Of a stretch of 64,000 nt of DNA, positions 34,901 to 63,246 are shown piece by piece. The translations under genes and the position numbers were made by a program. Positions within the stretch are counted from its first letter, which is position 1. Each line of letters starts with the position of its first letter. The stretch is taken from the NCBI RefSeq assembly GCF_003691585.1, contig NZ_CP033169.1, positions 930,001-994,000 on the forward strand, read 5' to 3'. The DNA comes from Biomaibacter acetigenes (GTDB taxonomy: Bacteria > Bacillota > Thermosediminibacteria > Thermosediminibacterales > Tepidanaerobacteraceae). The notes under the pieces are model-generated. The model saw only the letters and a program-made list of their open reading frames with translations. It was not told the origin of the DNA and searched no databases.

Positions 34901-36046
34901 ATGGATATAAAAAATCTTTCCACACCGGTTTTTATGGTAGACCTGGATATTCTGGAATTTAACATTAAAGAAATGGCCAGCCTTTGCAAAAAAAATAATA
35001 AAGAGCTCTGGCCCATGGTAAAGACCCACAAGAGCACTCAAATAGCCAGGATGCAACAAGAGGCTGGAGCTAAAGGTTTTCTGGTAGGAACTCTGGATGA
35101 GGCGGAAAAACTTGCACAAGAAGGGTTTAAAAACATTATGCTGGCATATCCGGCAGCCGGGGAACAAAACGTTGCCAGGGTAATTAATACAGCTAAAAAG
35201 TCGCGGATTATCCTCAGCCTGGATGGCATGGATGCGGCGAAAGCCTTAAATGAAGCGGCAAAGTGCCATGGCCTGACTCTGGAATATCTCATCATAATCG
35301 ACAGCGGCCTTCACCGCTTTGGGGTTTTGCCTGAAGAAGCGGTGAAACTGGCCAGTAATTTATCGGTTTTGGAGTATCTAAAGCTAGTCGGTATAGGCAC
35401 CCATCCCGGCCATGTATATGGTGCCTCAAGCTCCGAGGAAGTCAAAAAAGTTGCCGACGAAGAGATGACAGCCATGAAGCAGGCAAGGGAAAATATGGAA
35501 AGAGCTGGATTCAGAATTAACATTGTGGCGACCGGCAGCACTCCAACGGCGATATATGCCGCTAAAGATGAAAATATTACAGCACTCCGCCCGGGCAATT
35601 ATGTATTTTATGACAACATCCAGATGGCTTTAGGCGTTGTTCCGGAATCGAGGTGTGCTCTCGCCGTGCTGGGCACAATTATATCGCATCCCAGGGAAGA
35701 TATTTTTATCATAGATGTGGGCAGCAAATGTCTGGGGCTTGATAAAGGTGCCCACGGCATCTCACTGGTAAAGGGGTATGGCTTAATAAAAGACCATCCG
35801 GAGCTTTTGATAACTGATCTTTCAGAGGAAGTAGGGAAAATAAAGATAATAGGTGACACCAAAGTCAAAGTAGGAGATAAACTGCAGGTGATTCCTAACC
35901 ACGCCTGCTCCACCGCCAATATGACGGATTATCTCATAGGCCATAGAAAAGGCGAAATTGAAAGGGCCATATATATCGATATACGTGGAGGTTCCTTCAG
36001 GAACCCGTCGGTGAACGATTTATTTTGCTTAAAGAGCAGGATTTAG
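34901..36046 (+). CDS. D-threonine aldolase/DSD1-like PLP enzyme
   Basis: Fold-type III PLP enzyme of 381 residues with an alanine-racemase N-terminal barrel. The PLP lysine is in MVKTHKSTQIARMQ. A GTHPGHVYG loop and VATGSTPT phosphate-binding segment follow. The C-terminal beta domain has PNHACSTANM, whose His and Cys bind the metal in the D-threonine aldolase, D-serine dehydratase and 3-hydroxyaspartate aldolase group. It acts on beta-hydroxy D-amino acids, giving glycine plus an aldehyde or a keto acid plus ammonia. The two activities cannot be separated here. The start follows GGAGGG. Confidence 0.83.
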   Translation: MDIKNLSTPVFMVDLDILEFNIKEMASLCKKNNKELWPMVKTHKSTQIARMQQEAGAKGFLVGTLDEAEKLAQEGFKNIMLAYPAAGEQNVARVINTAKKSRIILSLDGMDAAKALNEAAKCHGLTLEYLIIIDSGLHRFGVLPEEAVKLASNLSVLEYLKLVGIGTHPGHVYGASSSEEVKKVADEEMTAMKQARENMERAGFRINIVATGSTPTAIYAAKDENITALRPGNYVFYDNIQMALGVVPESRCALAVLGTIISHPREDIFIIDVGSKCLGLDKGAHGISLVKGYGLIKDHPELLITDLSEEVGKIKIIGDTKVKVGDKLQVIPNHACSTANMTDYLIGHRKGEIERAIYIDIRGGSFRNPSVNDLFCLKSRI

Positions 36047-46159: not shown

Positions 46160-46475
46160 TGCCCTCGGGACAGTTACATTTCATCAAAATGAATCCCTGT
46201 CAAAATACCATGGTACTTGCGACAGAATATCACCCAAAGGAATATTATTTTACATTTGTGGGACAAGCAACAAAATATGACAGTTGATGTGCCGATCATG
46301 TGAGCTTTATCGTGCTGACAAAAAATGTAAAGCCTTAAGTCTATGTAAGATCTACCCAAAGCAGCGTTTTTAAAAAAGGATGCGGTTCAGAAAACGTGGA
46401 GGTAAATCTTAAAAACATAGGCCTAAGAGATAAAATAACTGTAATGCAGTTGGGAGGTGTTATATATACGTGCAT
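46160..46475 (+). pseudogene. Decayed, internally deleted copy of the DapF-like gene
   Basis: The first 130 or so bases align with 52022-52145 of the intact DapF-fold gene (shared TTTCATCAAAATGA and CAAAGGAATATTAT blocks). After a deletion of several hundred bases, about 46340-46470 aligns with 52612-52740 (ACCCAAAGC, GGATGCGGTTC-type and GTAATGCAG blocks). Several stops and the loss of the first catalytic Cys region make it non-functional. It ends just before the ribosome site of the histidinol dehydrogenase homologue. The rest of the 45942-46531 gap is AT-rich with nothing recognised. Confidence 0.75.
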
Positions 46476-46531: not shown

Positions 46532-47800
46532 GTGATTAAGTTAAAAGAACCCGCTATAACCAAAGACCAAAGGGATAAGTCTATCCAACAAAAAGTTGCC
46601 GAAATCATAGACAAAGTTAAAAGGGAAGGCGACAAAGCTTTAAGAGAATACAACATATTATTTGATGGATGTGACAGGGAAAATTACATAGTCACTAAAG
46701 AAGAAATAGATAAGGCCTTTCAAGAGGTAAGCAGTGATATCATAAATGATCTGCGCTTTGCCGCCCACAACATAGAAGAATTTGCCAGAAGGCAAAAAGA
46801 AACCATAAAGTCTTTGGAAGAAAAAGAAATAATGCCAGGAGTGTTTTTAGGACACAGGACTATTCCTGTGAGATCATGTGCTTGTTACGTGCCGGGGGGA
46901 AGATACCCATTGCCGTCATCGGCATTGATGTCCATAATTCCGGCAAAAGTGGCCGGTGTTAAGAGGGTCATAACCTGTTCACCTCCGGCCAAAGATACAA
47001 AGACTATAAACCCTTTCACATTAGTGGCCATGAGTATAGCCGGAGCCGATGAGATATATGTCATGGGGGGAGTTCAAGCCATAGCGGCATTTACCTATGG
47101 CACAAAAACCATCACACCCGTGGAAAAGATCGTAGGACCGGGCAATCAATACGTAACAGAGGCAAAGCGTCAGGTGAGCGGTGAGGTGGGCATAGATTTT
47201 TTAGCAGGTCCCAGTGAGGTAGTGGTCATTGCTGATAAAACCGCCAATCCTGTAAACATTGCCGCAGACCTGTTGGCCCAATCGGAACACGATCCGCAAG
47301 CCCGGGGCATATTGCTGTGCACCGATGAAGCCATAGGTAAAGCTGTTATAAAGCAGGTAGAGGATTTTCTTTTCGATTTGTCCACGGCCGATATAGCCCG
47401 TCAGGCATGGATCAACAATGGTCAGGTTACCGTCTTTGATACCCTGGAAGAGGCAATAGATACGGCCAATGAAATTGCTCCAGAACACCTGGAACTCCAG
47501 GTGCAAAGCCCTGACGAAGTGGTGCCTAAATTGACAAATTACGGTTCACTGTTCATTGGAGAAAAAGCCGCGGAGGTCTTTGGAGATTATGTTTCCGGGA
47601 CCAATCACATATTGCCTACCATGAGAGCAGCAAGATACACCGGCGGAGTATGGGTGGGCACTTTCATCAAGATCGCGACAAATCAACGTTTGACAGATGA
47701 AGGGGTAAAAGCCATTGCGCCGGTGGCATCGAGATTGGCACATCTTGAAGGCTTATATGCGCATAAGCTTGCCGCCGATGTGAGATTAAAAAATATGTGA
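46532..47800 (+). CDS. hisD: Histidinol dehydrogenase homologue
   Basis: This 422-residue zinc- and NAD-dependent dehydrogenase has YVPGGRYPLPSSALM, the GPGNQYVTEAKRQV signature, LLAQSEHDPQA (Gln/His zinc ligands), the catalytic EIAPEHLELQV Glu-His pair, and SGTNHILPT. The sequence is complete. True HisD oxidises histidinol to histidine in biosynthesis, but no other his genes are near and the surroundings are histidine catabolism. It may therefore be a catabolic paralogue acting on histidinol or a related alcohol. The GTG start follows AGAGGAG. Confidence 0.85.
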   Translation: MIKLKEPAITKDQRDKSIQQKVAEIIDKVKREGDKALREYNILFDGCDRENYIVTKEEIDKAFQEVSSDIINDLRFAAHNIEEFARRQKETIKSLEEKEIMPGVFLGHRTIPVRSCACYVPGGRYPLPSSALMSIIPAKVAGVKRVITCSPPAKDTKTINPFTLVAMSIAGADEIYVMGGVQAIAAFTYGTKTITPVEKIVGPGNQYVTEAKRQVSGEVGIDFLAGPSEVVVIADKTANPVNIAADLLAQSEHDPQARGILLCTDEAIGKAVIKQVEDFLFDLSTADIARQAWINNGQVTVFDTLEEAIDTANEIAPEHLELQVQSPDEVVPKLTNYGSLFIGEKAAEVFGDYVSGTNHILPTMRAARYTGGVWVGTFIKIATNQRLTDEGVKAIAPVASRLAHLEGLYAHKLAADVRLKNM

Positions 47801-47811
47801 GGAGGGGTAGC

Positions 47812-48210
47812 ATGGGCAGTAATTCTAATGGTGGAGACTTGTTACCAATAAATCCCAGCATTGGTGCACCGGCCAGATATTTATTCGGCATGGCTAGAGA
47901 TGGAGTATTATCGCCGATTTTTGCAAAACTCCATGAAAAGTATAAAGCCCGTATGTAGCGGAGACATCCGAATTTATCCAGACCATACAAAGCCCCCGCC
48001 GGAATAGCAGGTGCGATGATAAGCATCATCGCTTATCTAATAATGATGACACAGCTGCCGAAAGATGGTATAAAAACAGGCATTATATGGTGCGCTGTGG
48101 GGCTCGCGTTTTATTTCATAAGAAATTATGCAAAAAGAGGATCTGATAATACACCGGATGTGAAAGAAGAAGATATATTGAGCGAAATTATCCCGGAAAT
48201 GCCGTCATAG
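47812..48210 (+). pseudogene. Amino acid permease (APC family) remnant
   Basis: A good ribosome site (GAGGAGGGG) leads into a 48-codon frame containing GAPARYLFGMARDGVLSPIF, the late APC-permease motif, which then stops. Downstream, NLSRPYKAPAGIAGA and a last hydrophobic stretch in another phase match the C-terminus of the same family. The first roughly 300 residues and the segment between the two pieces are missing. It probably once served histidine uptake next to hisD; this is an inference. Confidence 0.75.
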
Positions 48211-48703: not shown

Positions 48704-50113
48704 ATGGGAATGATTCTGTTTATTGTTATTCTTTACATGGCTTTAATGTTATTTGTCGGTTGGTGGTGCAGTAAATATTATATCAATGGCATGACAGATT
48801 TCTTGCTAGCGGGCAGGAGACTCGGAATATGGCTCCTGGCTGGAACGCTGGCGGCCACCCACTTTGGTGGAGGAGCAGTTATGGGTGGAGGTGAATATGG
48901 TTTTAATTATGGTATATCCGGTGCATGGTACGGCGTATCCTGCGGCATAGGTTTATTACTCCTGGCATTTATGACTGCCAGTAAATTCAGAGACCTCTCC
49001 CTATACACGGTACCTGATTATCTTGAACAAAGATATGGTGGCAAGACAGTTAGGGTCCTCGGAGCAATACTTTCATTGATAGCTCTTGTTGGCATCCTTG
49101 CGGCCCAGGTACTTTCAGCAAAAGGTGCACTGGGTATTCTCGGCATAAAAGGTAATGCCGGAGCAATCATAGCCACGTTGGTATTTATAGTCTATACTAC
49201 TTCGGGGGGATTATGGGCTGCTACCATTACAGACTTCGTTCAAATAATACTTGCTGCAATTGGCGTCATTATAGCCAGCGCCGTGGTTTTAGCAAAAACC
49301 GGCGGATTTGGCGGGCTTTCTGCAATGCTTGTGACAAAAGGTGCCGAAGCAGGTTACTTTAATATCTGGGGCATGGGTACAGCCAGCATTATGTGGGTTT
49401 TACTTCCCACTGTTATGTATACCCTCATAGGTCAGGATTTTTACCAGAGGCTTTTTGCTGCAAAAGACGCAAAAGTTGCAAGAAATGCTTCAATCGTGGG
49501 TGGGATAGTACTTGTCATCGTGAGCTTCTTCCCAGCTATCATAGGTATGGGTGCCAGAGCCCTTTCAAATATTGATGAGGCCGGCATGTCGGTACCATGG
49601 GTTATGGAAAACTTACTGCATCCGGTAATAGGCGGCATTGTGCTGGCGGCAATATTAGCTGCCATCATGTCTACTGCCGATTCTCTTTTAACTGCGGCCG
49701 CTTCTCATATAGTAAAAGACCTTTGGGTAGAGACTTTCAAGCTAGATGAAGTAAAAGATGAAAAGAGACTTCTTAATATTTCAAGAAACTTTACTTTTTT
49801 AATCGGCATATTGTCTTTGATAATAGCTCTGCTGGTGCCTGGGATAATCGATGCCCTTATTTACTCCTATACCATGTATACCGCCGGGGTATTTATCCCC
49901 GTGATTGGCGGTGTCTTATGGAAAGGTGCTACCAGGGCCGGTGCCCTATCATCCCTTATAGGTGGTTCAATAGTGGCCCTTTGTGGAATACTTTCTAAAG
50001 CCAATATTTTTGGCGCACCGGCAGAAATATATGCTGCCCTGGTTTCACTGGTGATCTTTGTGGTGGTGTCACTAGCCACCCAGAAAAAGCTGGTTGATGG
50101 AATAACGAAGTAA
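48704..50113 (+). CDS. Sodium:solute symporter (SSS family) of the hut island
   Basis: Membrane protein of 469 residues with about thirteen helices. TDFLLAGRRLGIWLLAGTLAATHFGGG and the late MSTADSLLTAAASHIVKDL segment, with its Na2-site Ser/Thr, are typical of SSS cotransporters (PutP/PanF group). Its position between a histidinol dehydrogenase homologue and hutH suggests uptake of histidine, urocanate or a related compound with Na+. Two in-frame starts (48704, 48710) follow AAGGGGG. Confidence 0.85.
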   Translation: MGMILFIVILYMALMLFVGWWCSKYYINGMTDFLLAGRRLGIWLLAGTLAATHFGGGAVMGGGEYGFNYGISGAWYGVSCGIGLLLLAFMTASKFRDLSLYTVPDYLEQRYGGKTVRVLGAILSLIALVGILAAQVLSAKGALGILGIKGNAGAIIATLVFIVYTTSGGLWAATITDFVQIILAAIGVIIASAVVLAKTGGFGGLSAMLVTKGAEAGYFNIWGMGTASIMWVLLPTVMYTLIGQDFYQRLFAAKDAKVARNASIVGGIVLVIVSFFPAIIGMGARALSNIDEAGMSVPWVMENLLHPVIGGIVLAAILAAIMSTADSLLTAAASHIVKDLWVETFKLDEVKDEKRLLNISRNFTFLIGILSLIIALLVPGIIDALIYSYTMYTAGVFIPVIGGVLWKGATRAGALSSLIGGSIVALCGILSKANIFGAPAEIYAALVSLVIFVVVSLATQKKLVDGITK

Positions 50114-50428: not shown

Positions 50429-51964
50429 ATGATAGTAAATGGAGAAAACTTAACTATTCAAGATATAGTAAAAGTTGCGGTAATGGGAGAAAAGGTACAA
50501 CTTTCACCCGAATCCATACAAAAGATCCAAAAATCCAGGGAGTATGTGGAGCAAATCATACAAAAAGACGATATAGTTTACGGTGTGACAACAGGATTTG
50601 GGAAATTCTGTAATGTGGTCATATCTCCGGAAGATACCAGAAAGCTCCAGCTAAATCTTATTAGGAGCCATTCCGTAGGAATCGGTGAGTATTTCCCTGA
50701 AGAAGTGGTGAGGGCTATGATGCTTTTAAGGATAAATGCTCTTGCCAAAGGGTATTCGGGTATAAGGCTTTCTACATTGCAAACTTTGCTGGATATGCTA
50801 AATAAAGGGGTAATACCCCGGGTGCCAAGTCAGGGGTCACTGGGAGCCAGTGGCGACCTTGTTCCTTTGGCACATATGGTTCTTGTAATGATCGGTGAAG
50901 GTGAAGCAGTGTATAAAGGAGAAGTCTTGCCCGGGGAAAAGGTGATGGAAATAGCAGGAATAAAGCCCATATCTCTGGAAGCTAAGGAAGGCCTTGCCCT
51001 CATCAACGGCACTCAGGCTATGTCGGCAGTGGGGAGTTTGGCCCTGGCTAAAGCTGTCAATCTTTCCAAAACTGCCGATATTTGTGGGGCTTTGAATCTT
51101 GAGGCTTTAAACGGCATCATAGACGCATTTGATGAAAAGGTACAGGCGGTAAGGCCACATTCCGGACAAAAGTTATGCGCCGCCAACATAAAAAAGTTGC
51201 TGGAAGGCAGTGAATTTATTACCAGACAGGGTGAGTTTAAAGTCCAGGATGCTTATGTTTTGCGCTGCATGCCCCAGGTCCATGGAGCAGTGAAAGATGC
51301 CCTCTCCCATGTGAAAAATGTTATAGAAATTGAAATAAATTCCGCCACTGATAATCCCCTTATTTTCCCCGATGATGGCAGAGTAATTTCCGGCGGAAAT
51401 TTCCATGGAGAACCTGTGGCCATAAATATGGATTATATGGGTATAGCCGTTTCAGAACTAGCCAGTATATCCGAGCGTCGCATAGAGCGTCTGGTGAATC
51501 CCAACTTAAATGAAGGCTTGCCCGCTTTTTTGACCGGAAACGGCGGCCTAAACTCAGGCCTCATGATCAGCCAGTACACCGCAGCATCGTTGGTATCGGA
51601 AAATAAGGTTTTAGCACACCCGGCCAGCGTTGATTCCATCCCTTCCTCGGCAAACCAGGAAGACCATGTTAGCATGGGTACTATAGCGGCAAGAAAGGCC
51701 ATGAAGATAGTGGAGAACACCCAAAATGTGCTGGCCATCGAGCTTTTATGTGCAACACAGGCTATAGATTTGAGAAGAGCAAAGATGGGTCGCTCTACAA
51801 AACTTGGCAAAGGGACCCAGATCGTATATGAATTGGTGAGAAAACAAGTGCCCCAAATAGAAGAAGACAGAGTATTGAGTGAGGATGTTAAAACCCTGGC
51901 AAAGTTGGTAGATAGTGGGCAATTGGCTAGAGCCGTAGAAGAATGGATAGGTGAATTGAGATAA
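50429..51964 (+). CDS. hutH: Histidine ammonia-lyase
   Basis: This 511-residue enzyme deaminates L-histidine to urocanate. The self-formed MIO prosthetic group comes from Ala140-Ser141-Gly142 in GSLGASGDLVPLAHM. The early YGVTTGFGKF carries the catalytic Tyr, and SSANQEDHVSMGTIAARKA is the later signature. Length and motifs are those of authentic HutH. ATG 50429 follows GGGAGGT. The DapF-like gene begins 53 nt after the stop, so the two are probably co-transcribed. Confidence 0.96.
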   Translation: MIVNGENLTIQDIVKVAVMGEKVQLSPESIQKIQKSREYVEQIIQKDDIVYGVTTGFGKFCNVVISPEDTRKLQLNLIRSHSVGIGEYFPEEVVRAMMLLRINALAKGYSGIRLSTLQTLLDMLNKGVIPRVPSQGSLGASGDLVPLAHMVLVMIGEGEAVYKGEVLPGEKVMEIAGIKPISLEAKEGLALINGTQAMSAVGSLALAKAVNLSKTADICGALNLEALNGIIDAFDEKVQAVRPHSGQKLCAANIKKLLEGSEFITRQGEFKVQDAYVLRCMPQVHGAVKDALSHVKNVIEIEINSATDNPLIFPDDGRVISGGNFHGEPVAINMDYMGIAVSELASISERRIERLVNPNLNEGLPAFLTGNGGLNSGLMISQYTAASLVSENKVLAHPASVDSIPSSANQEDHVSMGTIAARKAMKIVENTQNVLAIELLCATQAIDLRRAKMGRSTKLGKGTQIVYELVRKQVPQIEEDRVLSEDVKTLAKLVDSGQLARAVEEWIGELR

Positions 51965-52017: not shown

Positions 52018-52812
52018 ATGAAACTAAATTTCATCAAAATGAGTCCCTGCCAAAATACCACTGTATTCATCACAGAATATTGCCCAAAGGAATATTATAT
52101 TGCAGTTGCCAGGGAAGTAATGAACTATGACAGTTTATGTGCCGAACAGGTGGGGTTTATCGTACCGCCTAAAAACGCAGATTCGGTTTTGGGCATGGAG
52201 ATGGCCGGAGGTGAATTTTGTGGCAACGCCAGCCTTTGCGCAGCCGTCTATGTGAGATATAGTGGAATTTATGAAAAAGATGATTTCTTTATAGATGTGT
52301 CAGGTGCAAGTGACCCTTTAAGATGTCATGTGGAGGAAAAATCCAATTATGTTTATAGCGCAGAATGTGAGATGCCTTTTCCCATTTCGGTTAAAGATGC
52401 AAAGATTGAAATTAACAAGAAAAAGATAAAAGGGAGTATCATAGATTTTAAGGGAATATCACATTTTATATTTAAATCATGGCGCGATTTTAATGATTAT
52501 GATAAAGTTATGGATCTCATTAAATCAAAAATCGAATCTGATGCCATCGGTATTGTCCCGTACATTGAACTGGGGAAAGGTGAATACGAGATAAAGCCTT
52601 ATGTCTATGTTAGGTCCACCCAAAGCCACGTTTTTGAAAAAGGTTGTGGTTCGGGGAGCATGGCATTGGGGGTATACCTAAAAAAATATATGGGTTTAAG
52701 AGGTAAAATCGGGGTAATGCAGCCGGGAGGTACTATAGGTGTTGAAGTAGGAGATAAAAACTTTATATCTAGCGATGTTAAGATAACTTGTGAGGGGTCT
52801 ATATTGATATAA
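52018..52812 (+). CDS. DapF-fold amino acid epimerase/racemase, possibly histidine racemase
   Basis: This 264-residue protein has the two-domain diaminopimelate-epimerase fold. The cofactor-independent catalytic pair is Cys68 (GEFCGNASLC) and Cys210 (EKGCGSGSMALG). It differs from lysine-pathway DapF, and no dap genes are near. Known DapF-fold relatives include histidine racemases (the CntK type of metallophore synthesis and a fusobacterial enzyme). Linkage to hutH makes D-/L-histidine interconversion a good hypothesis, but proof is lacking. ATG 52018 follows AAGGAGG. A broken copy lies at 46160-46475. Confidence 0.75.
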   Translation: MKLNFIKMSPCQNTTVFITEYCPKEYYIAVAREVMNYDSLCAEQVGFIVPPKNADSVLGMEMAGGEFCGNASLCAAVYVRYSGIYEKDDFFIDVSGASDPLRCHVEEKSNYVYSAECEMPFPISVKDAKIEINKKKIKGSIIDFKGISHFIFKSWRDFNDYDKVMDLIKSKIESDAIGIVPYIELGKGEYEIKPYVYVRSTQSHVFEKGCGSGSMALGVYLKKYMGLRGKIGVMQPGGTIGVEVGDKNFISSDVKITCEGSILI

Positions 52813-52953: not shown

Positions 52954-54240
52954 ATGGATAGGTCCAAAGCTGCGTGGAAGTTTGTTGTTTACAGTGTTAT
53001 CGGATTTTTTATGTTCTTTATCCCTATCAAGCTTAATGGAAGTTCTTCTATTCCTCTTGATCATGTGGTTACAGGGTTAAGGCAAGCTCTTCCTGGACTC
53101 GCACTACTTTACGGTCTTATTGTTACAATCATCGGCGGTGTAATGCCATGGCTCAATGGGACTTGGAAAAAATCCACGGTAGATAGGGTATTTTCGGTGT
53201 TCAAGGTTGCGGGCATTGTTATAGCCTTTATGGTATATTTAAAGATAGGGCCCGCATGGATGATGGACCCGGATATGGGGCCGTTTCTTTTCAATAAATT
53301 GGTGGTACCGGTGGGTATGATAGTACCAATAGGGTCCGTATTCCTGGCTTTTTTGGTTAGCTATGGCCTTATGGAATTTGTGGGAACCCTCTTAAGACCA
53401 GTAATGCGAACTATTTGGAAAACACCTGGAAGATCTGCGGTAGATGCCGTTGCATCTTTCGTTGGAAGTTATTCGATAGCTTTATTGATAACAAATAAAG
53501 TGTTCAAAGAAGGTAAATATACTATCAAAGAAGCGGCCATAATTGCTACCGGATTTTCCACGGTTTCTGCAACCTTTATGATAATAGTAGCAAAGACCCT
53601 TAAAATAATGGATATGTGGAATATGTATTTCTGGGCAACTCTTGTTATTACATTCGTAGTAACTGCCATTACCGCCCGCTTGTGGCCGCTGGCTGCCAAG
53701 TCAAATGAATATGTGGGTGAAGCCTCTCCTGAAAAAGAGGAAAAAGGCAACCTTTTAGCTAGGGCGTGGGATGAAGCCCTAAAAGTGGCCGATGTAGCTC
53801 CAGGGATTTGGGATAATATCGTAAAAAATATAAAAGATGGTTTCAGGATGGCTACATCAATACTACCGACCATAATGTCTATAGGACTTCTTGGGCTTGT
53901 GCTTGCAGAATTTACACCAATATTTGATTGGATAGGATGGATATATTATCCCTTTACGGCACTATTGCGCATTCCTGAACCTTTCCTGGCGGCCAAAGCT
54001 TCTGCCGTAGAGGTAGCGGAAATGTTCCTCCCTGCACTATTAACAGTAAGCGCGCCTCTGGCGACAAAGTTCGTGGTAGCTGTAGTATCCGTATCAGCAA
54101 TACTATTTTTCTCGGCTTCGATACCGTGTATACTTTCTACCGAAATCCCCTTGACCATAAGCGAGATAATGGTAATATGGATAGAAAGGACCATACTCTC
54201 GATTATATTTGCCGGTGTACTGGCGATGATATTGTTTTAA
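52954..54240 (+). CDS. YjiH-family membrane protein, candidate hut transporter
   Basis: Polytopic membrane protein of 428 residues with about ten to eleven helices of the nucleoside-recognition ('gate') type. VDAVASFVGSYSIALLITNKVFKEGKYT and a matching late segment EVAEMFLPALLT form two related halves. YjiH-type genes often sit beside histidine-degradation genes, as here 25 nt before hutU, which suggests transport of histidine, urocanate or a product. No experiment known to me fixes the substrate. The ATG follows GGAGGG. Confidence 0.75.
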   Translation: MDRSKAAWKFVVYSVIGFFMFFIPIKLNGSSSIPLDHVVTGLRQALPGLALLYGLIVTIIGGVMPWLNGTWKKSTVDRVFSVFKVAGIVIAFMVYLKIGPAWMMDPDMGPFLFNKLVVPVGMIVPIGSVFLAFLVSYGLMEFVGTLLRPVMRTIWKTPGRSAVDAVASFVGSYSIALLITNKVFKEGKYTIKEAAIIATGFSTVSATFMIIVAKTLKIMDMWNMYFWATLVITFVVTAITARLWPLAAKSNEYVGEASPEKEEKGNLLARAWDEALKVADVAPGIWDNIVKNIKDGFRMATSILPTIMSIGLLGLVLAEFTPIFDWIGWIYYPFTALLRIPEPFLAAKASAVEVAEMFLPALLTVSAPLATKFVVAVVSVSAILFFSASIPCILSTEIPLTISEIMVIWIERTILSIIFAGVLAMILF

Positions 54241-54265: not shown

Positions 54266-55909
54266 ATGGAAATTATTAAATCACCCACAGGAAAAGAAAT
54301 TACATGTAAGAGTTGGCAGCAGGAGGGGCTTTTGAGGCTCCTCCTCAATTGCCTTGACCCGGATATTGCCAAGGCTCCGGAAGAACTGGTGGCCTATGGC
54401 GGTCGGGGCAAAGTGGCAAGGGATATAGAGTCTTTAAAGGCCATCGTAAATGCTTTGATGAATCTTGAAAACGATGAGACTCTGCTCATTCAATCAGGGA
54501 AACCCGTGGGGGTTTTCAGGACTTTCGAGTATGCCCCCAGGGTCATCATGGCCGGGGCGCTGCTGGTGCCCCACTGGTCTAACTGGGAATATTTCCACAA
54601 GCTGGAAGAAAGGGGTTTGACGGCTTTTGGCCAATCAACCGCCGGTTCCTGGGCATACATCGGAACCCAGGGGATACTGCAGGGCACGTGGGAGACTTTT
54701 GGACAGGTGGCTAAAAGACACTTTGGAGGCACTCTTAAAGGAAAGATGGTGCTAACCTCGGGCCTTGGGGAGATGGGCAGCGCCCAGCCACTGGCCATTA
54801 CCGCCAACGGAGGTGTGGCTATTGTGGCCGATGTAGACAGGGCTATCGTCAAAAAGCGACTGATATCAAGCATGATTGATATTATGGCCGATTCCCTGGG
54901 TGAAGCCCTTGAAATGGCAGGAGAATACATAGCCAAAGGCGAACCCGTATCCATTGGATTGTGCGGCAATGCGGCTGATGTATATGGATATTTTGTAAGC
55001 CATAAAATTACTCCCGATGTGGTAACGGATCAAACACCGGCCCATGATCTGGAAAGCTATATACCATCGGGACTTTCGCCCCGAGAAGCGCACCTACTGG
55101 CGGAGGAAGAACCAGAACGATATGAGAAAATGGTTATGGAAACCATAAGGCGTCATGTAAGGGCCATGGTGGAACTTAAGAACATGGGAGCGGTGGTGTT
55201 CGATTATGGCAACAACCTGAGAGAGCAGGGGCGAAAGGCAGGCATTGAAGATGCTTTTTGTTTTCCGGGATTTGCTTCAGAGTACATCAGGCCGCTCTTT
55301 TGTGAAGGGAGAGGGCCTTTCAGGTGGGTAGCATTGTCGGGAGATCCTGAAGATATTTACAAGACCGATGAGGTAATCCTGTCGCTTTTTAAAGGAGACA
55401 CAAGGCTTCACGACTGGCTGAATTTTGTGGAAAGGAGATTTATGTTCCACGGGCTGCCGGCTCGGGTATGCTGGCTCAATTATAAGGAGAGGTCGGTTTT
55501 CGGAAAGATCATAAATGAGATGGTGACGTCAGGGAAGCTAAAAGCCCCCATAGCCATCACAAGAGACCATATGGATGCGGCGGCGGTGGCCTCACCCTTC
55601 AGGGAAACCGAGGCCATGAAAGACGGTAGCGACGCCATTGCAGACTGGCCGGTACTAAATGCCCTTTTAAACTGCAGCTCCGGGGCTACACTGGTAGGAA
55701 TCTATCAGGGAGGCGGAGTGGGTATTGGATATTCCATCCACTCCGGGGTGACGGTGATAGCCGATGGTACTGAACAGGCGCAAAAAAGACTGGACCATGT
55801 CTTGAAAGCAGATCCCGCTCTTGGCGTCATACGTTATGCCGATGCCGGGTACGAAACTGCAAGAGAAATAATTAAAGATCCAGATTTTCCCGCAAAAGTG
55901 GTAAGTTGA
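54266..55909 (+). CDS. hutU: Urocanate hydratase, classical bacterial form
   Basis: This 547-residue urocanase converts urocanate to imidazolone propionate with tightly bound NAD+ as electrophile. It has SGKPVGVFRTFEYAPRVIM, TSGLGEMGSAQPLA with the NAD-binding loop, DQTPAHD, and the Cys-containing GLPARVCWLNYKER segment. QGGGVGIGYSIHSG is near the end. It is followed immediately by an AraC-type regulator and, further on, by a second longer urocanase. The ATG follows AAAGGAAAGG. Confidence 0.95.
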   Translation: MEIIKSPTGKEITCKSWQQEGLLRLLLNCLDPDIAKAPEELVAYGGRGKVARDIESLKAIVNALMNLENDETLLIQSGKPVGVFRTFEYAPRVIMAGALLVPHWSNWEYFHKLEERGLTAFGQSTAGSWAYIGTQGILQGTWETFGQVAKRHFGGTLKGKMVLTSGLGEMGSAQPLAITANGGVAIVADVDRAIVKKRLISSMIDIMADSLGEALEMAGEYIAKGEPVSIGLCGNAADVYGYFVSHKITPDVVTDQTPAHDLESYIPSGLSPREAHLLAEEEPERYEKMVMETIRRHVRAMVELKNMGAVVFDYGNNLREQGRKAGIEDAFCFPGFASEYIRPLFCEGRGPFRWVALSGDPEDIYKTDEVILSLFKGDTRLHDWLNFVERRFMFHGLPARVCWLNYKERSVFGKIINEMVTSGKLKAPIAITRDHMDAAAVASPFRETEAMKDGSDAIADWPVLNALLNCSSGATLVGIYQGGGVGIGYSIHSGVTVIADGTEQAQKRLDHVLKADPALGVIRYADAGYETAREIIKDPDFPAKVVS

Positions 55910-57221: not shown

Positions 57222-59258
57222 ATGTTAAGCAATTTTGACATATCAAAGGCTATGACGGTAAAACTGGACGATGAGTTGCCGGAAATGCCGGATTTTGTGG
57301 AAGGGATAAGGAGGGCGCCGGCCAGAGATTTCCGCTTAACAAAAGAGCAGACAAAAATTGCCTTAAAAAATGCACTCCGCTATGTGCCGGAGAAATATCA
57401 TGAAAAACTTGCTCCGGAGTTTTTAAACGAGCTTTTGACCCGGGGAAGGATCTATGCTTACAGGTTCAGGCCCGAAGGCAGGATCTACGGGAAACCTGTA
57501 GACGAATATAAAGGCAAATGCCTTGCGGGCAAGGCTTTTCAGGTCATGATAGACAATAACCTTGATTTTGAGGTGGCCTTATACCCCTATGAACTGGTGA
57601 CATACGGGGAAACGGGCAGCGTGTGCCAGAACTGGATGCAGTATAGATTGATAAAGAAATATCTTGAAGTCCTTACCGAAGATCAGACCCTTGTCATCGA
57701 GTCGGGCCATCCCGTAGGACTTTTCCCTTCAAAGCCCGATGCCCCAAGGGTAATTATCACCAATGCCCTTATGGTGGGCATGTTCGATAACCAGGATGAC
57801 TGGGAAATAGCTGAAGAAATGGGTGTGGCCAACTACGGGCAGATGACGGCAGGAGGTTGGATGTACATTGGTCCCCAGGGCATTGTCCACGGCACCTTCA
57901 ACACCCTCTTAAACGCCGGAAGGTTGAAGCTGGGTATACCCCATGATAAGGACTTGAGAGGCCACCTGTTTGTGTCTTCAGGCCTGGGTGGCATGAGCGG
58001 TGCCCAGGCTAAAGCTGTGGAAATAGCCGGGGGTGTGGGCATCATAGCCGAGGTGGATTACTCACGGATTAAGACCCGCAAGATGCAGGGATGGGTGAGC
58101 AAGGTATCCTCCGATTTTGAAGAGGTATTCAGGATTGCCCATGAGTATTTACAGAAAAAAGAACCTATTTCCATAGCGTATTATGGAAATATTGTAGACC
58201 TTCTTGAATATTTCGTCAAAAACAACATAAAAGTTGATCTGCTGTCAGACCAGACTTCCTGCCATGTGCCCTATGACGGCGGCTACTGTCCTCAGGGGCT
58301 CACCTTTGCAGAGAGGACTAGAATGCTCGCCGAAGACAGGGAAAAATTCCGGGAGCTTGTGAATAAGAGTTTGAGGCATCACTTTGAATTGATTAAGATA
58401 TTGGTGGACAGGGGCACTTATTTCTTCGATTACGGAAATTCCTTCATGAAGGCTGTGTTTGATGCAGGTGTTAAGGAAATTTCCAAAAACGGTGTGGATG
58501 AAAAAGACGGGTTCATATTTCCTTCCTATGTAGAGGATATAATGGGACCGGAACTCTTTGATTACGGTTATGGGCCTTTCAGATGGGTCTGCCTGAGCGG
58601 AAAGCATGAGGACCTCATAAAGACCGATAAAGCAGCTATGGAATGCATCGATCCCAGCAGGCGGGGCCAGGACCGCGACAATTATATCTGGATCCGCGAT
58701 GCCGAAAAGAACAACCTGGTGGTGGGAACCCAGGCCAGGATTCTATACCAGGACGCCGAGGGAAGGGTGAAGATAGCTCTTAAGTTCAATGAAATGGTGA
58801 GAAATGGTGAAATCGGACCGGTAATGCTGGGAAGAGACCACCATGATGTGAGCGGTGCCGATTCACCCTTCCGGGAAACCGCAAATATCAAGGATGGAAG
58901 CAATGTCATGGCAGATATGGCCACCCAGTGCTTTGCAGGCAATGCCGCCAGGGGCATGACCCTTGTGACCCTGCACAATGGGGGCGGTGTGGGTATAGGT
59001 AAGGCTATCAACGGCGGTTTCGGACTGTTGCTGGATGGAAGCCAGAAAACCGACAATATCATAAAATCTGCCCTGCTCTGGGATGTCATGGGCGGTGTGG
59101 CCCGGAGGTCCTGGGCAAGGAATCCGCATTCTATAGAGACCGCTGTGGAATTCAATAAAAACTATCGTGGCCTCGGCCATATAACAATTCCTTATATTCC
59201 CGACCAAAAGCTTATTGATGAAGTTGTGGAAAAGGGGTTAGGAGAATCGAGCAAGTAG
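57222..59258 (+). CDS. Long-type urocanate hydratase (UROC1-like)
   Basis: This 678-residue protein of the urocanase superfamily is about 130 residues longer than hutU here. Shared motifs are IESGHPVGLFPSKPDAPRV, SSGLGGMSGAQAKA, DQTSCH and NGGGVGIGKAINGG. The segment aligned with GLPARVCW of the short form reads GTQARILYQDAEG and lacks the Cys. The length is that of the animal-like and some anaerobe urocanases. It may be a second urocanate hydratase, or act on a modified urocanate. The ATG follows AGGGGAGGG. Confidence 0.85.
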   Translation: MLSNFDISKAMTVKLDDELPEMPDFVEGIRRAPARDFRLTKEQTKIALKNALRYVPEKYHEKLAPEFLNELLTRGRIYAYRFRPEGRIYGKPVDEYKGKCLAGKAFQVMIDNNLDFEVALYPYELVTYGETGSVCQNWMQYRLIKKYLEVLTEDQTLVIESGHPVGLFPSKPDAPRVIITNALMVGMFDNQDDWEIAEEMGVANYGQMTAGGWMYIGPQGIVHGTFNTLLNAGRLKLGIPHDKDLRGHLFVSSGLGGMSGAQAKAVEIAGGVGIIAEVDYSRIKTRKMQGWVSKVSSDFEEVFRIAHEYLQKKEPISIAYYGNIVDLLEYFVKNNIKVDLLSDQTSCHVPYDGGYCPQGLTFAERTRMLAEDREKFRELVNKSLRHHFELIKILVDRGTYFFDYGNSFMKAVFDAGVKEISKNGVDEKDGFIFPSYVEDIMGPELFDYGYGPFRWVCLSGKHEDLIKTDKAAMECIDPSRRGQDRDNYIWIRDAEKNNLVVGTQARILYQDAEGRVKIALKFNEMVRNGEIGPVMLGRDHHDVSGADSPFRETANIKDGSNVMADMATQCFAGNAARGMTLVTLHNGGGVGIGKAINGGFGLLLDGSQKTDNIIKSALLWDVMGGVARRSWARNPHSIETAVEFNKNYRGLGHITIPYIPDQKLIDEVVEKGLGESSK

Positions 59259-61573: not shown

Positions 61574-63246
61574 GTGAAGACTGATATTGAAATTGCCCAG
61601 GAAGCCAAACTCGAACCTATAAAAAAGATTGCCGAATCCATCGGCCTTTCGGAGGAAGAGATTTTCTTCTACGGTAAGTATAAGGCAAAGGTGGACCACA
61701 GGATATTGAAGAAATTACAGGGCAAGAAGGAGGGAAAGTTGATCCTTGTTACCGCCATCACCCCTACACCGGCCGGTGAGGGCAAGACAACAACAACGGT
61801 AGGCCTGGGGGATGCTCTGAAAAAACTTGGCAAGAAAGTCGTGATAGCGCTCAGGGAACCGGCCCTTGGCCCTGTCTTCGGAATAAAGGGCGGTGCAGCC
61901 GGAGGCGGATATGCCCAGGTGGTACCGATGGAGGATATAAATTTGCATTTTACAGGGGATTTTCATGCTATAGGAGCTGCCAACAACCTATTGGCGGCCA
62001 TGCTGGACAACCACATTTACCAGGGGAATACTTTAAATATCGATCCCAGAAAGATTACCTGGCGGCGCTGCATGGATATGAATGACCGGCAGCTCCGATT
62101 TATCGTGGATGGCCTGGGAGGAAAAGCCAACGGGGTTCCCAGGGAGGATGGGTTTGATATAACAGTAGCTTCGGAAGTCATGGCGGCTTTTTGCCTGGCC
62201 AAAAGCTTGCCGGATTTAAAGGAGCGCCTATCAAAAATAATTGTGGCCTATACATATGATGGTAAACCCGTGACGGCAGGGGATTTAAAGGCTGAAGGGG
62301 CTATGGCCGTTCTGCTGAAAGAAGCCATAAACCCAAACCTTGTTCAAACCCTTGAACATACTCCCGCTTTCATCCATGGCGGACCTTTTGCCAACATAGC
62401 CCACGGCTGCAACAGCCTGATTGCCACGAAACTGGCACTGAGTCTGGCGGATTATGTAGTGACTGAGGCAGGATTCGGTGCGGACCTGGGTGCCGAAAAA
62501 TTCGTAGATATAAAGTGCCGTCTGGGAGGATTAAAGCCTGATGCTGCTGTCCTGGTGGCAAGCGTAAGAGCGCTGAAACACCACGGAGGGGTAGCAAAAC
62601 AGGAGCTTTCAAAGAAAATCTACAGGCCCTTGAAAAAGGAATACCGAATATGATAAAACATATTGAAAATATCAGCAAGCAGTATGGTCTTCAGGTGGCG
62701 GTGGCCATAAACCGCTTCCCCACCGATACCGAAGATGAGCTCAATATGGTCTTCGATGGATGCAAGGCTATGAATGTACCTGCAGCCGTCTCCGAAGTCT
62801 TTACAAAAGGCTCCGAAGGTGGCCTGGATCTGGCTGAACAAGTATTAAAATTGATTGAAAAAGGGCAAAATGAATTTAAATTCGTATATCCCCTCGATAT
62901 GAACTTAAAAGACAAAATTGAAACCATAGCCAGAAATGTCTACGGAGCCGAAGGCGTGGATTTTACCCGGGAAGCGGAAAAGGAGATAGAAAATCTGGAA
63001 GCTCTGGGTTACAGCCATTTACCCATCTGTATGGCAAAAACCCAGTATTCCCTGTCCGATGACCCCAAGCTTCTTGGAAAACCCGAGGGATTCAGGATTA
63101 CCGTAAGGCAGATAAAGGTTTTCGCAGGAGCAGGATTTGTGATAGCCCTAACGGGTGCCATCATGACCATGCCGGGCCTACCCAAAGTTCCTGCAGCCGA
63201 AAAGATAGATGTCGATGAAGATGGAAGGATTACGGGTCTATTCTAG
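61574..63246 (+). CDS. fhs: Formate-tetrahydrofolate ligase with one apparent -1 frameshift
   Basis: This ATP-dependent enzyme interconverts formate plus THF and 10-formyl-THF. The first part (61574-62653) has Walker [17 protein letters not shown] and [14 protein letters not shown]. The second (62650-63246) has [12 protein letters not shown]-like [13 protein letters not shown] and ends GRITGLF. The frame is lost at A5G2, 62633-62639. One added base gives [14 protein letters not shown] and a full protein of about 557 residues. The loss of this central enzyme within an intact operon is unlikely, so a sequence error is favoured. In this operon it could run in reverse, making ATP from formyl-THF. 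The GTG start follows AGGAGG. Confidence 0.88.

What the first reader, a model, noticed from the sequence alone, without database searches (positions are those of the whole stretch)
52018..52812. Possible histidine racemase inside a hut operon
A cofactor-independent DapF-fold enzyme with both catalytic cysteines (C68/C210) follows hutH, with no lysine-pathway genes near. DapF-fold histidine racemases are known. Here one could feed D-histidine into HutH or make D-histidine for another use.
Basis: partly seen in the sequence, partly recalled or inferred. Interest (0 to 1): 0.65.

Follow-up and report, generated by a model that had tools for sequence, protein, structure and literature searches.

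The report
Histidine racemase in histidine-degradation gene cluster
A bacterial gene cluster for breaking down the amino acid histidine carries a likely enzyme that flips histidine between its mirror-image forms, probably so that the cell can also eat the D form, and the same pairing recurs in several other groups of bacteria.

Summary
An intact 264-aa gene with catalytic Cys68 and Cys210 starts 53 bp after hutH, inside a hut cluster (hutH, two hutU, ftcD, hutI). It is not DapF. It scores 155 and 131 bits to the NCBIfam models of the two characterised cofactor-independent histidine racemases (Fusobacterium HisR, Staphylococcus CntK) and 35 bits to DapF. A tree puts it in a racemase clade with both, split from DapF at 100/100. 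Its predicted structure matches HisR best (Z 31). The genome has a genuine dapF elsewhere and no opine dehydrogenase. New here: linkage to hutH recurs in at least three subclades, often with a 3-nt gap. Near relatives carry the hut cluster without the gene. This favours a D-histidine branch feeding HutH (inferred), and gives a testable role for racemases whose physiology is unexplained in print. A decayed second copy lies 5.8 kb upstream, next to hisD.

The parts
52018..52812 (+). hisR-like gene, predicted cofactor-independent histidine racemase, 264 aa; C68 and C210 catalytic, E43/E66/E207 predicted imidazole or amino-group contacts
50429..51964 (+). hutH, histidine ammonia-lyase
   Evidence: TIGR01225 727.9 bits
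51967..51982 (+). weak terminator-like hairpin between hutH and hisR; no promoter-like + strand site listed in the gap
   Evidence: consensus scan, terminator count not above shuffles
48704..50113 (+). sodium:solute symporter upstream of hutH; also next to hisR or hutH in relatives; candidate histidine importer (substrate inferred)
   Evidence: TIGR00813 171.9 bits, below its cut-off of 184; neighbours
52954..54240 (+). Gate-domain (nucleoside recognition) membrane protein, possible transporter
   Evidence: PF07670 49 bits
54266..55909 (+). hutU, urocanate hydratase, short form
   Evidence: TIGR01228 796 bits
55911..57143 (+). AraC-type regulator
57222..59258 (+). second hutU, long form (678 aa)
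   Evidence: TIGR01228 434.5 bits
59327..60229 (+). ftcD, glutamate formimidoyltransferase
   Evidence: TIGR02024 462.5 bits
60245..61534 (+). hutI, imidazolonepropionase
   Evidence: TIGR01224 486 bits
46175..46464 (+). decayed second copy of the hisR gene: both ends remain, the middle is lost, in-frame stops
   Evidence: tblastn-type pieces 57% and 63%; DNA 78% and 73% to the intact copy
46532..47800 (+). hisD, histidinol dehydrogenase, directly after the decayed copy; the only hisD found in the genome
   Evidence: TIGR00069 496 bits

Best explanation
The gene encodes a cofactor-independent histidine racemase of the HisR/CntK clade. Cys68 and Cys210 act as the two acid/base residues that exchange the alpha proton, and E43/E66/E207 hold the imidazole and alpha-amino groups (inferred from homology). 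In this organism it serves the hut cluster: imported D-histidine, which HutH cannot use, is turned into L-histidine, which HutH then deaminates to urocanate. Shown here: clade, residues, predicted fold, gene linkage and its recurrence. Inferred: activity, net direction, import of D-histidine.
For: Profile scores HisR 155 / CntK 131 / DapF 35 bits. PDB sequence hits HisR 4.5e-29 and CntK 6e-21. Tree: racemase side of 49 rows, with HisR and CntK, split from the DapF side of 14 rows at 100/100. N13, E66, C68, E207, C210 invariant in 24 of 24 aligned relatives, E43 in at least 90%. Own DapF lacks GGEFC and has six more residues before its second Cys. Model pLDDT 94.6, best PDB matches HisR then CntK. 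hutH on the same strand within 1 kb of 15 of 30 genome-contig loci, 11 of those 15 with a 3-nt gap. In a sample of 398 genomes 20 have a relative, 11 of the 20 have hutH, 7 of the 20 within 1 kb. hut clusters without hisR at the same slot (G015, G017). A listed use of HutH enzymes is producing optically pure D-histidine (PMC11432326, passages), which fits HutH being blind to D-histidine (my inference). F. nucleatum depletes D- and L-histidine from medium (cited in PMC11602996 Discussion).
Against: No activity data. The protein is below the curated cut-offs of both histidine racemase models (155 of 400, 131 of 300). 12 of 30 genome-contig loci have no hutH in the DNA held, though some contigs are cut short and two of the 12 are DapF-like; in the family survey round L008 only 8 of 30 fetched loci have hutH within 1.5 kb, and 44 further matched places were not examined. 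Most genomes with hutH lack the gene: 115 of 126 in the phylum sample, the same-genus genome G001 among them. Of 33 genomes with a relative, 5 had no DapF over the cut-off, G010 of the window's own clade among them, so a DAP role cannot be excluded there. In F. nucleatum D-histidine did not restore growth of a hisR mutant (PMC11602996).
Confidence: 0.68

Rival explanations
1. It is a histidine racemase, but runs L to D: it draws on the histidine taken up by the hut system to make D-histidine for a metallophore, the cell wall or signalling.
For: CntK does this for staphylopine; CntK and the opine-linked rows are the sister group of the window's clade. A racemase runs both ways.
Against: No opine dehydrogenase PF10100 in G000, while 3 of 3 opine-linked genomes ring. 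The partner gene in several subclades is hutH, which destroys L-histidine. Non-opine uses of D-histidine were not tested.
Confidence: 0.17
2. Detoxification or balance: HisR removes D-histidine that would inhibit HutH or be mischarged, rather than supplying food.
For: Adjacency to hutH would suit this as well. That D-histidine inhibits histidase is recalled, not from a call; a review table says that D-histidine can inhibit growth of A. baumannii (PMC5346588 passage).
Against: Does not need an uptake system, yet relatives sit beside a sodium symporter or a polar amino acid ABC transporter.
Confidence: 0.1
3. It is a DapF-fold epimerase or racemase of another amino acid (diaminopimelate, lanthionine, a histidine analogue).
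For: Fold is shared by DapF, O-ureidoserine racemase, hydroxyproline epimerase and proline racemase at Z 23-29. Cut-offs of the histidine models are missed. HisR itself turns lanthionine slowly (PMC11602996, abstract).
Against: Highest scores, tree place and all three predicted imidazole-pocket Glu are those of histidine racemases. Genome has its own dapF. Neighbour genes act on histidine.
Confidence: 0.08

Closest known systems
HisR of Fusobacterium nucleatum (PDB 9CR1/9CR6, NF052224; PMC11602996)
   Same: 31-34% identity over the whole length, both Cys, Glu49/65/206 equivalents, top structural match
   Different: In F. nucleatum hisR lies among V-ATPase and folate genes and its role is unknown; here it follows hutH. 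On the tree it groups with other hutH-linked rows (84/92, below the star level), not with the window's clade. NCBIfam score 155, cut-off 400.
CntK of Staphylococcus aureus (6JIS, NF033599)
   Same: Full-length match, 23-26% identity; sister group of the window's clade at 96/90
   Different: CntK sits with cntL and cntM; PF10100 is absent from G000
DapF, diaminopimelate epimerase (TIGR00652, PF01678)
   Same: Same fold, Z about 23-28
   Different: 35.4 bits of a cut-off of 114.65; 20% identity to the genome's own DapF; different Cys motifs
D-histidine use through D-amino acid dehydrogenase, Salmonella (title of Wild et al. 1974 seen in a reference list)
   Same: Same net aim, D- to L-histidine

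Membership tests
HisR/CntK cofactor-independent histidine racemase | DapF-type fold | tested here: met
   AlphaFold model pLDDT 94.6, best Foldseek and VIA matches 9CR1/9CR6 and CntK
HisR/CntK cofactor-independent histidine racemase | two catalytic Cys | tested here: met
   C68, C210, invariant in 24 of 24 rows
HisR/CntK cofactor-independent histidine racemase | predicted substrate Glu residues (HisR 49, 65, 206) and Asn18 | tested here: met
   E43, E66, E207, N13; residue roles from PMC11602996
HisR/CntK cofactor-independent histidine racemase | placed with HisR and CntK, apart from DapF | tested here: met
   split at 100/100
NCBIfam equivalogs NF052224 and NF033599 | score over curated cut-off | tested here: not met
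   155.3 of 400 and 130.7 of 300
HisR/CntK cofactor-independent histidine racemase | histidine racemase activity without PLP | not testable with these tools
   needs an assay
DapF | score over TIGR00652 and PF01678 cut-offs | tested here: not met
   35.4 of 114.65 and 22.5 of 34.7 bits
DapF | DapF Cys motifs (as in own DapF: SEAPMCGNGIRC, WERGCGLTLACGTG) | tested here: not met
   GGEFCGN and FEKGCGSG instead
Opine-metallophore racemase (CntK role) | opine dehydrogenase CntM (PF10100) in genome | tested here: not met
   none in G000
hut cluster gene | same strand and close to hutH, linkage kept elsewhere | tested here: met
   53 bp; recurs in three subclades

The most novel reading that the evidence does not exclude
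hutH-linked HisR proteins form a widespread, so far undescribed D-histidine branch of the hut pathway in Bacillota, including gut-type Oscillospiraceae: a one-enzyme entry that needs no oxygen and lets cells burn both enantiomers of histidine. It would also suggest the ancestral job of the racemase clade, from which CntK was recruited to metallophores.
Probability: 0.55. Interest if true: 0.62.

Novelty: new variant of a known kind. Interest (0 to 1): 0.5.

Why it matters
Only two cofactor-independent histidine racemases are characterised according to PMC11602996 (abstract and Discussion), and for the fusobacterial one the authors say its purpose remains unclear. A racemase coupled to hutH gives a concrete and easily tested role, names a source-to-sink route for D-histidine, and gives a rule for annotating genes that would otherwise be called dapF-like. 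In the held library 1 paper holds 'D-histidine', 'urocanate' and 'racemase' together, 2 hold 'D-histidine' and 'hutH' and none holds 'cofactor-independent', 'racemase' and 'histidine utilization'; passages read from PMC11432326 do not describe a racemase-hutH pairing, and PMC6085447 was seen only as a listing.

Tried and rejected
Rejected: simple DapF. Rejected for this genome: staphylopine-type metallophore. Considered: a histidinol-use cluster because hisD sits here; but hisD is the only one in the genome, hisZ, G, B, H, A, F and IE are at G000:C1 1.914-1.921 Mb without hisD, and the nine other family genomes searched each have one hisD of this lineage at 59-65% identity, so hisD is most simply biosynthetic. 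Its place beside a hisR copy in the window and in G003 stays unexplained.

Weak result: over the phylum sample, presence of hisR and hutH in the same genome is only mildly associated (11 of 20 against 115 of 378, Fisher p 0.027; without the three opine genomes p 0.006). The adjacency figure (7 of 20, about 1e-14) assumes random placement and independent genomes and is only a rough guide, since the seven come from three families. The G358 relative was counted as adjacent from hit coordinates; its neighbourhood was not fetched. An AU test that all hutH-linked rows form one clade rejects it, as expected with unlinked rows inside the clades; this does not tell gain from loss. Rows dropped before the tree: L024, L026, L029 (truncated). 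L031 and L032 fell with DapF. L136 and L140 of the later survey come from the same genomes as L008 and L011. In one search the minus-strand loci show no motifs because only plus frames were scanned.

The stretch 47812-48210 looked like an amino acid permease remnant to me by eye (one search shows one in-frame stop); its first piece gave no Pfam match.

Full report
What is there. The ORF 52018-52812 (+) encodes 264 aa with a good ribosome-binding site. It follows hutH by 53 bp. The cluster runs: sodium:solute symporter, hutH, this gene, a Gate-domain membrane protein, hutU, an AraC-type regulator, a second long hutU, ftcD, hutI, then formate-THF ligase. The consensus scan lists no + strand promoter-like site in the 53-bp gap, a weak terminator-like hairpin in it, and a 10-of-12 promoter-like site after the gene; such scans are not evidence of function.

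What family. NCBIfam: HisR 155.3, CntK 130.7, DapF 35.4 bits, all under their cut-offs; Pfam DAP_epimerase 22.5 bits of 34.7. PDB by sequence: F. nucleatum HisR 4.5e-29, CntK 6e-21, best DapF 7e-4. The genome's own DapF is elsewhere, canonical (322.6 bits) and 20% identical. A 63-row maximum-likelihood tree splits 49 racemase rows, which include HisR and CntK, from 14 DapF-side rows at 100/100; the window's clade of 8 (100/98) is sister to CntK plus the opine-cluster rows (96/90). HisR and CntK are long branches and the exact place of HisR is less sure. The AlphaFold model (pLDDT 94.6) matches HisR (Z 31), CntK (Z 31), O-ureidoserine racemase (29) and DapF (28); the fold alone would not decide.

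Active site. PMC11602996 (abstract; sections 8 and 11, and section 9 part 1, read) proposes Asn18 and Glu206 for the amino group, Glu65 and Glu206 for the imidazole; CntK's authors, as reported there, propose the equivalent of Glu49. All four are kept here (N13, E43, E66, E207), and N13, E66, E207 are invariant in 24 of 24 aligned relatives. Own DapF has SEAPMCGNG where these have GGEFCGN, and six more residues before its second Cys.

Context elsewhere. A protein-pattern scan of genome contigs gave 30 loci: 15 of 30 have hutH on the same strand within 1 kb upstream, 3 more (L015, L022, L027) within about 5 kb, 12 none in the DNA held. In 11 of the 15 the gap is 3 nt, which suggests translational coupling. 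Among related genomes G020 and G022 have hutH then hisR, G010 hisR then hutH, G003 hisD-hisR-symporter, G024 symporter next to hisR. Family f53 (G145, G248, G378), on a separate branch near HisR, again has hutH then hisR. The same-phylum sample: 20 of 398 genomes have a relative at E <= 1e-10, 126 of 398 have hutH, 11 both, 7 within 1 kb. In the family sample round L008, 73 of 400 genomes match; of 30 fetched loci (of 74 matched places), 8 have hutH within 1.5 kb. Ten loci (L084, L150, L154, L159-L165) carry a polar amino acid ABC permease gene near the racemase gene (two ATPases and one permease typed by profile).

Presence and absence. G015 has hutH then the Gate-domain gene with only about 0.4 kb between and no hisR; G017, of the same genus as G020, has symporter-hutH-hutU with no hisR. 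So hisR comes and goes at one slot directly after hutH. G001, same genus as the window, has hutH but not the rest of the cluster in the 15 kb read.

Metallophore rival. PF10100 rings clearly in 3 of 33 genomes, all with the racemase gene close by (G090, G349, G388), weakly in G024, not in G000; the neighbour in G388 is CntL by profile, under its cut-off (294 of 350 bits).

Mechanism. Most likely: uptake of histidine of either hand, two-base (C68/C210) racemisation, removal of the L form by HutH, which pulls the equilibrium from D to L. Shown: sequence, fold prediction, linkage. Inferred: chemistry, direction, transport. HutH's use for making optically pure D-histidine is mentioned in PMC11432326 (passages).

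Second copy. 46175-46464 keeps the two ends of a second hisR (DNA 78% and 73%) with the middle lost, right before hisD. G003 has hisD followed by an intact hisR.

Novelty. The enzyme kind is known; its recurrent coupling to hutH was not found in the searched library (most of the papers listed there were seen as listings only). In the HisR paper the string 'hut' occurs twice and 'hutH' never; the passages shown with it are in the reference list, where Hutton is an author.

Noticed in passing
46175-46464: Decayed second hisR copy upstream of hisD, ends kept, middle lost.
   Followed up: yes
46532-47800: The genome's only hisD lies in the hut region, away from the his operon (hisZ, G, B, H, A, F, IE at G000:C1 about 1.914-1.921 Mb), whose hisC ORF lacks its N-terminal part.
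   Followed up: partly
54266-55909 and 57222-59258: Two urocanate hydratases of different length in one cluster, also in relatives (L057, L167).
   Followed up: no
61574-63246: Formate-tetrahydrofolate ligase split into two ORFs (359 and 198 aa) that overlap at ATGA; the second matches profile positions 361-556.
   Followed up: partly
34901-36046: PLP enzyme with Ala_racemase_N and D-ser_dehydrat domains, a D-amino acid enzyme family, just before a branched-chain-type ABC transporter: a second D-amino acid gene in the window (transporter named by eye).
   Followed up: no
L120 11099-12637 (G000:C1 about 667.1-668.6 kb): A second hutH in the genome, 76% identical, with no match to the other hut proteins in the 19.5 kb read.
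   Followed up: partly
L150, L154, L159-L165: Racemase-clade genes near polar amino acid ABC transporter genes in genomes of the family of L008.
   Followed up: partly
G010: Near-complete genome with a hut-linked hisR and no DapF over the cut-off.
   Followed up: no
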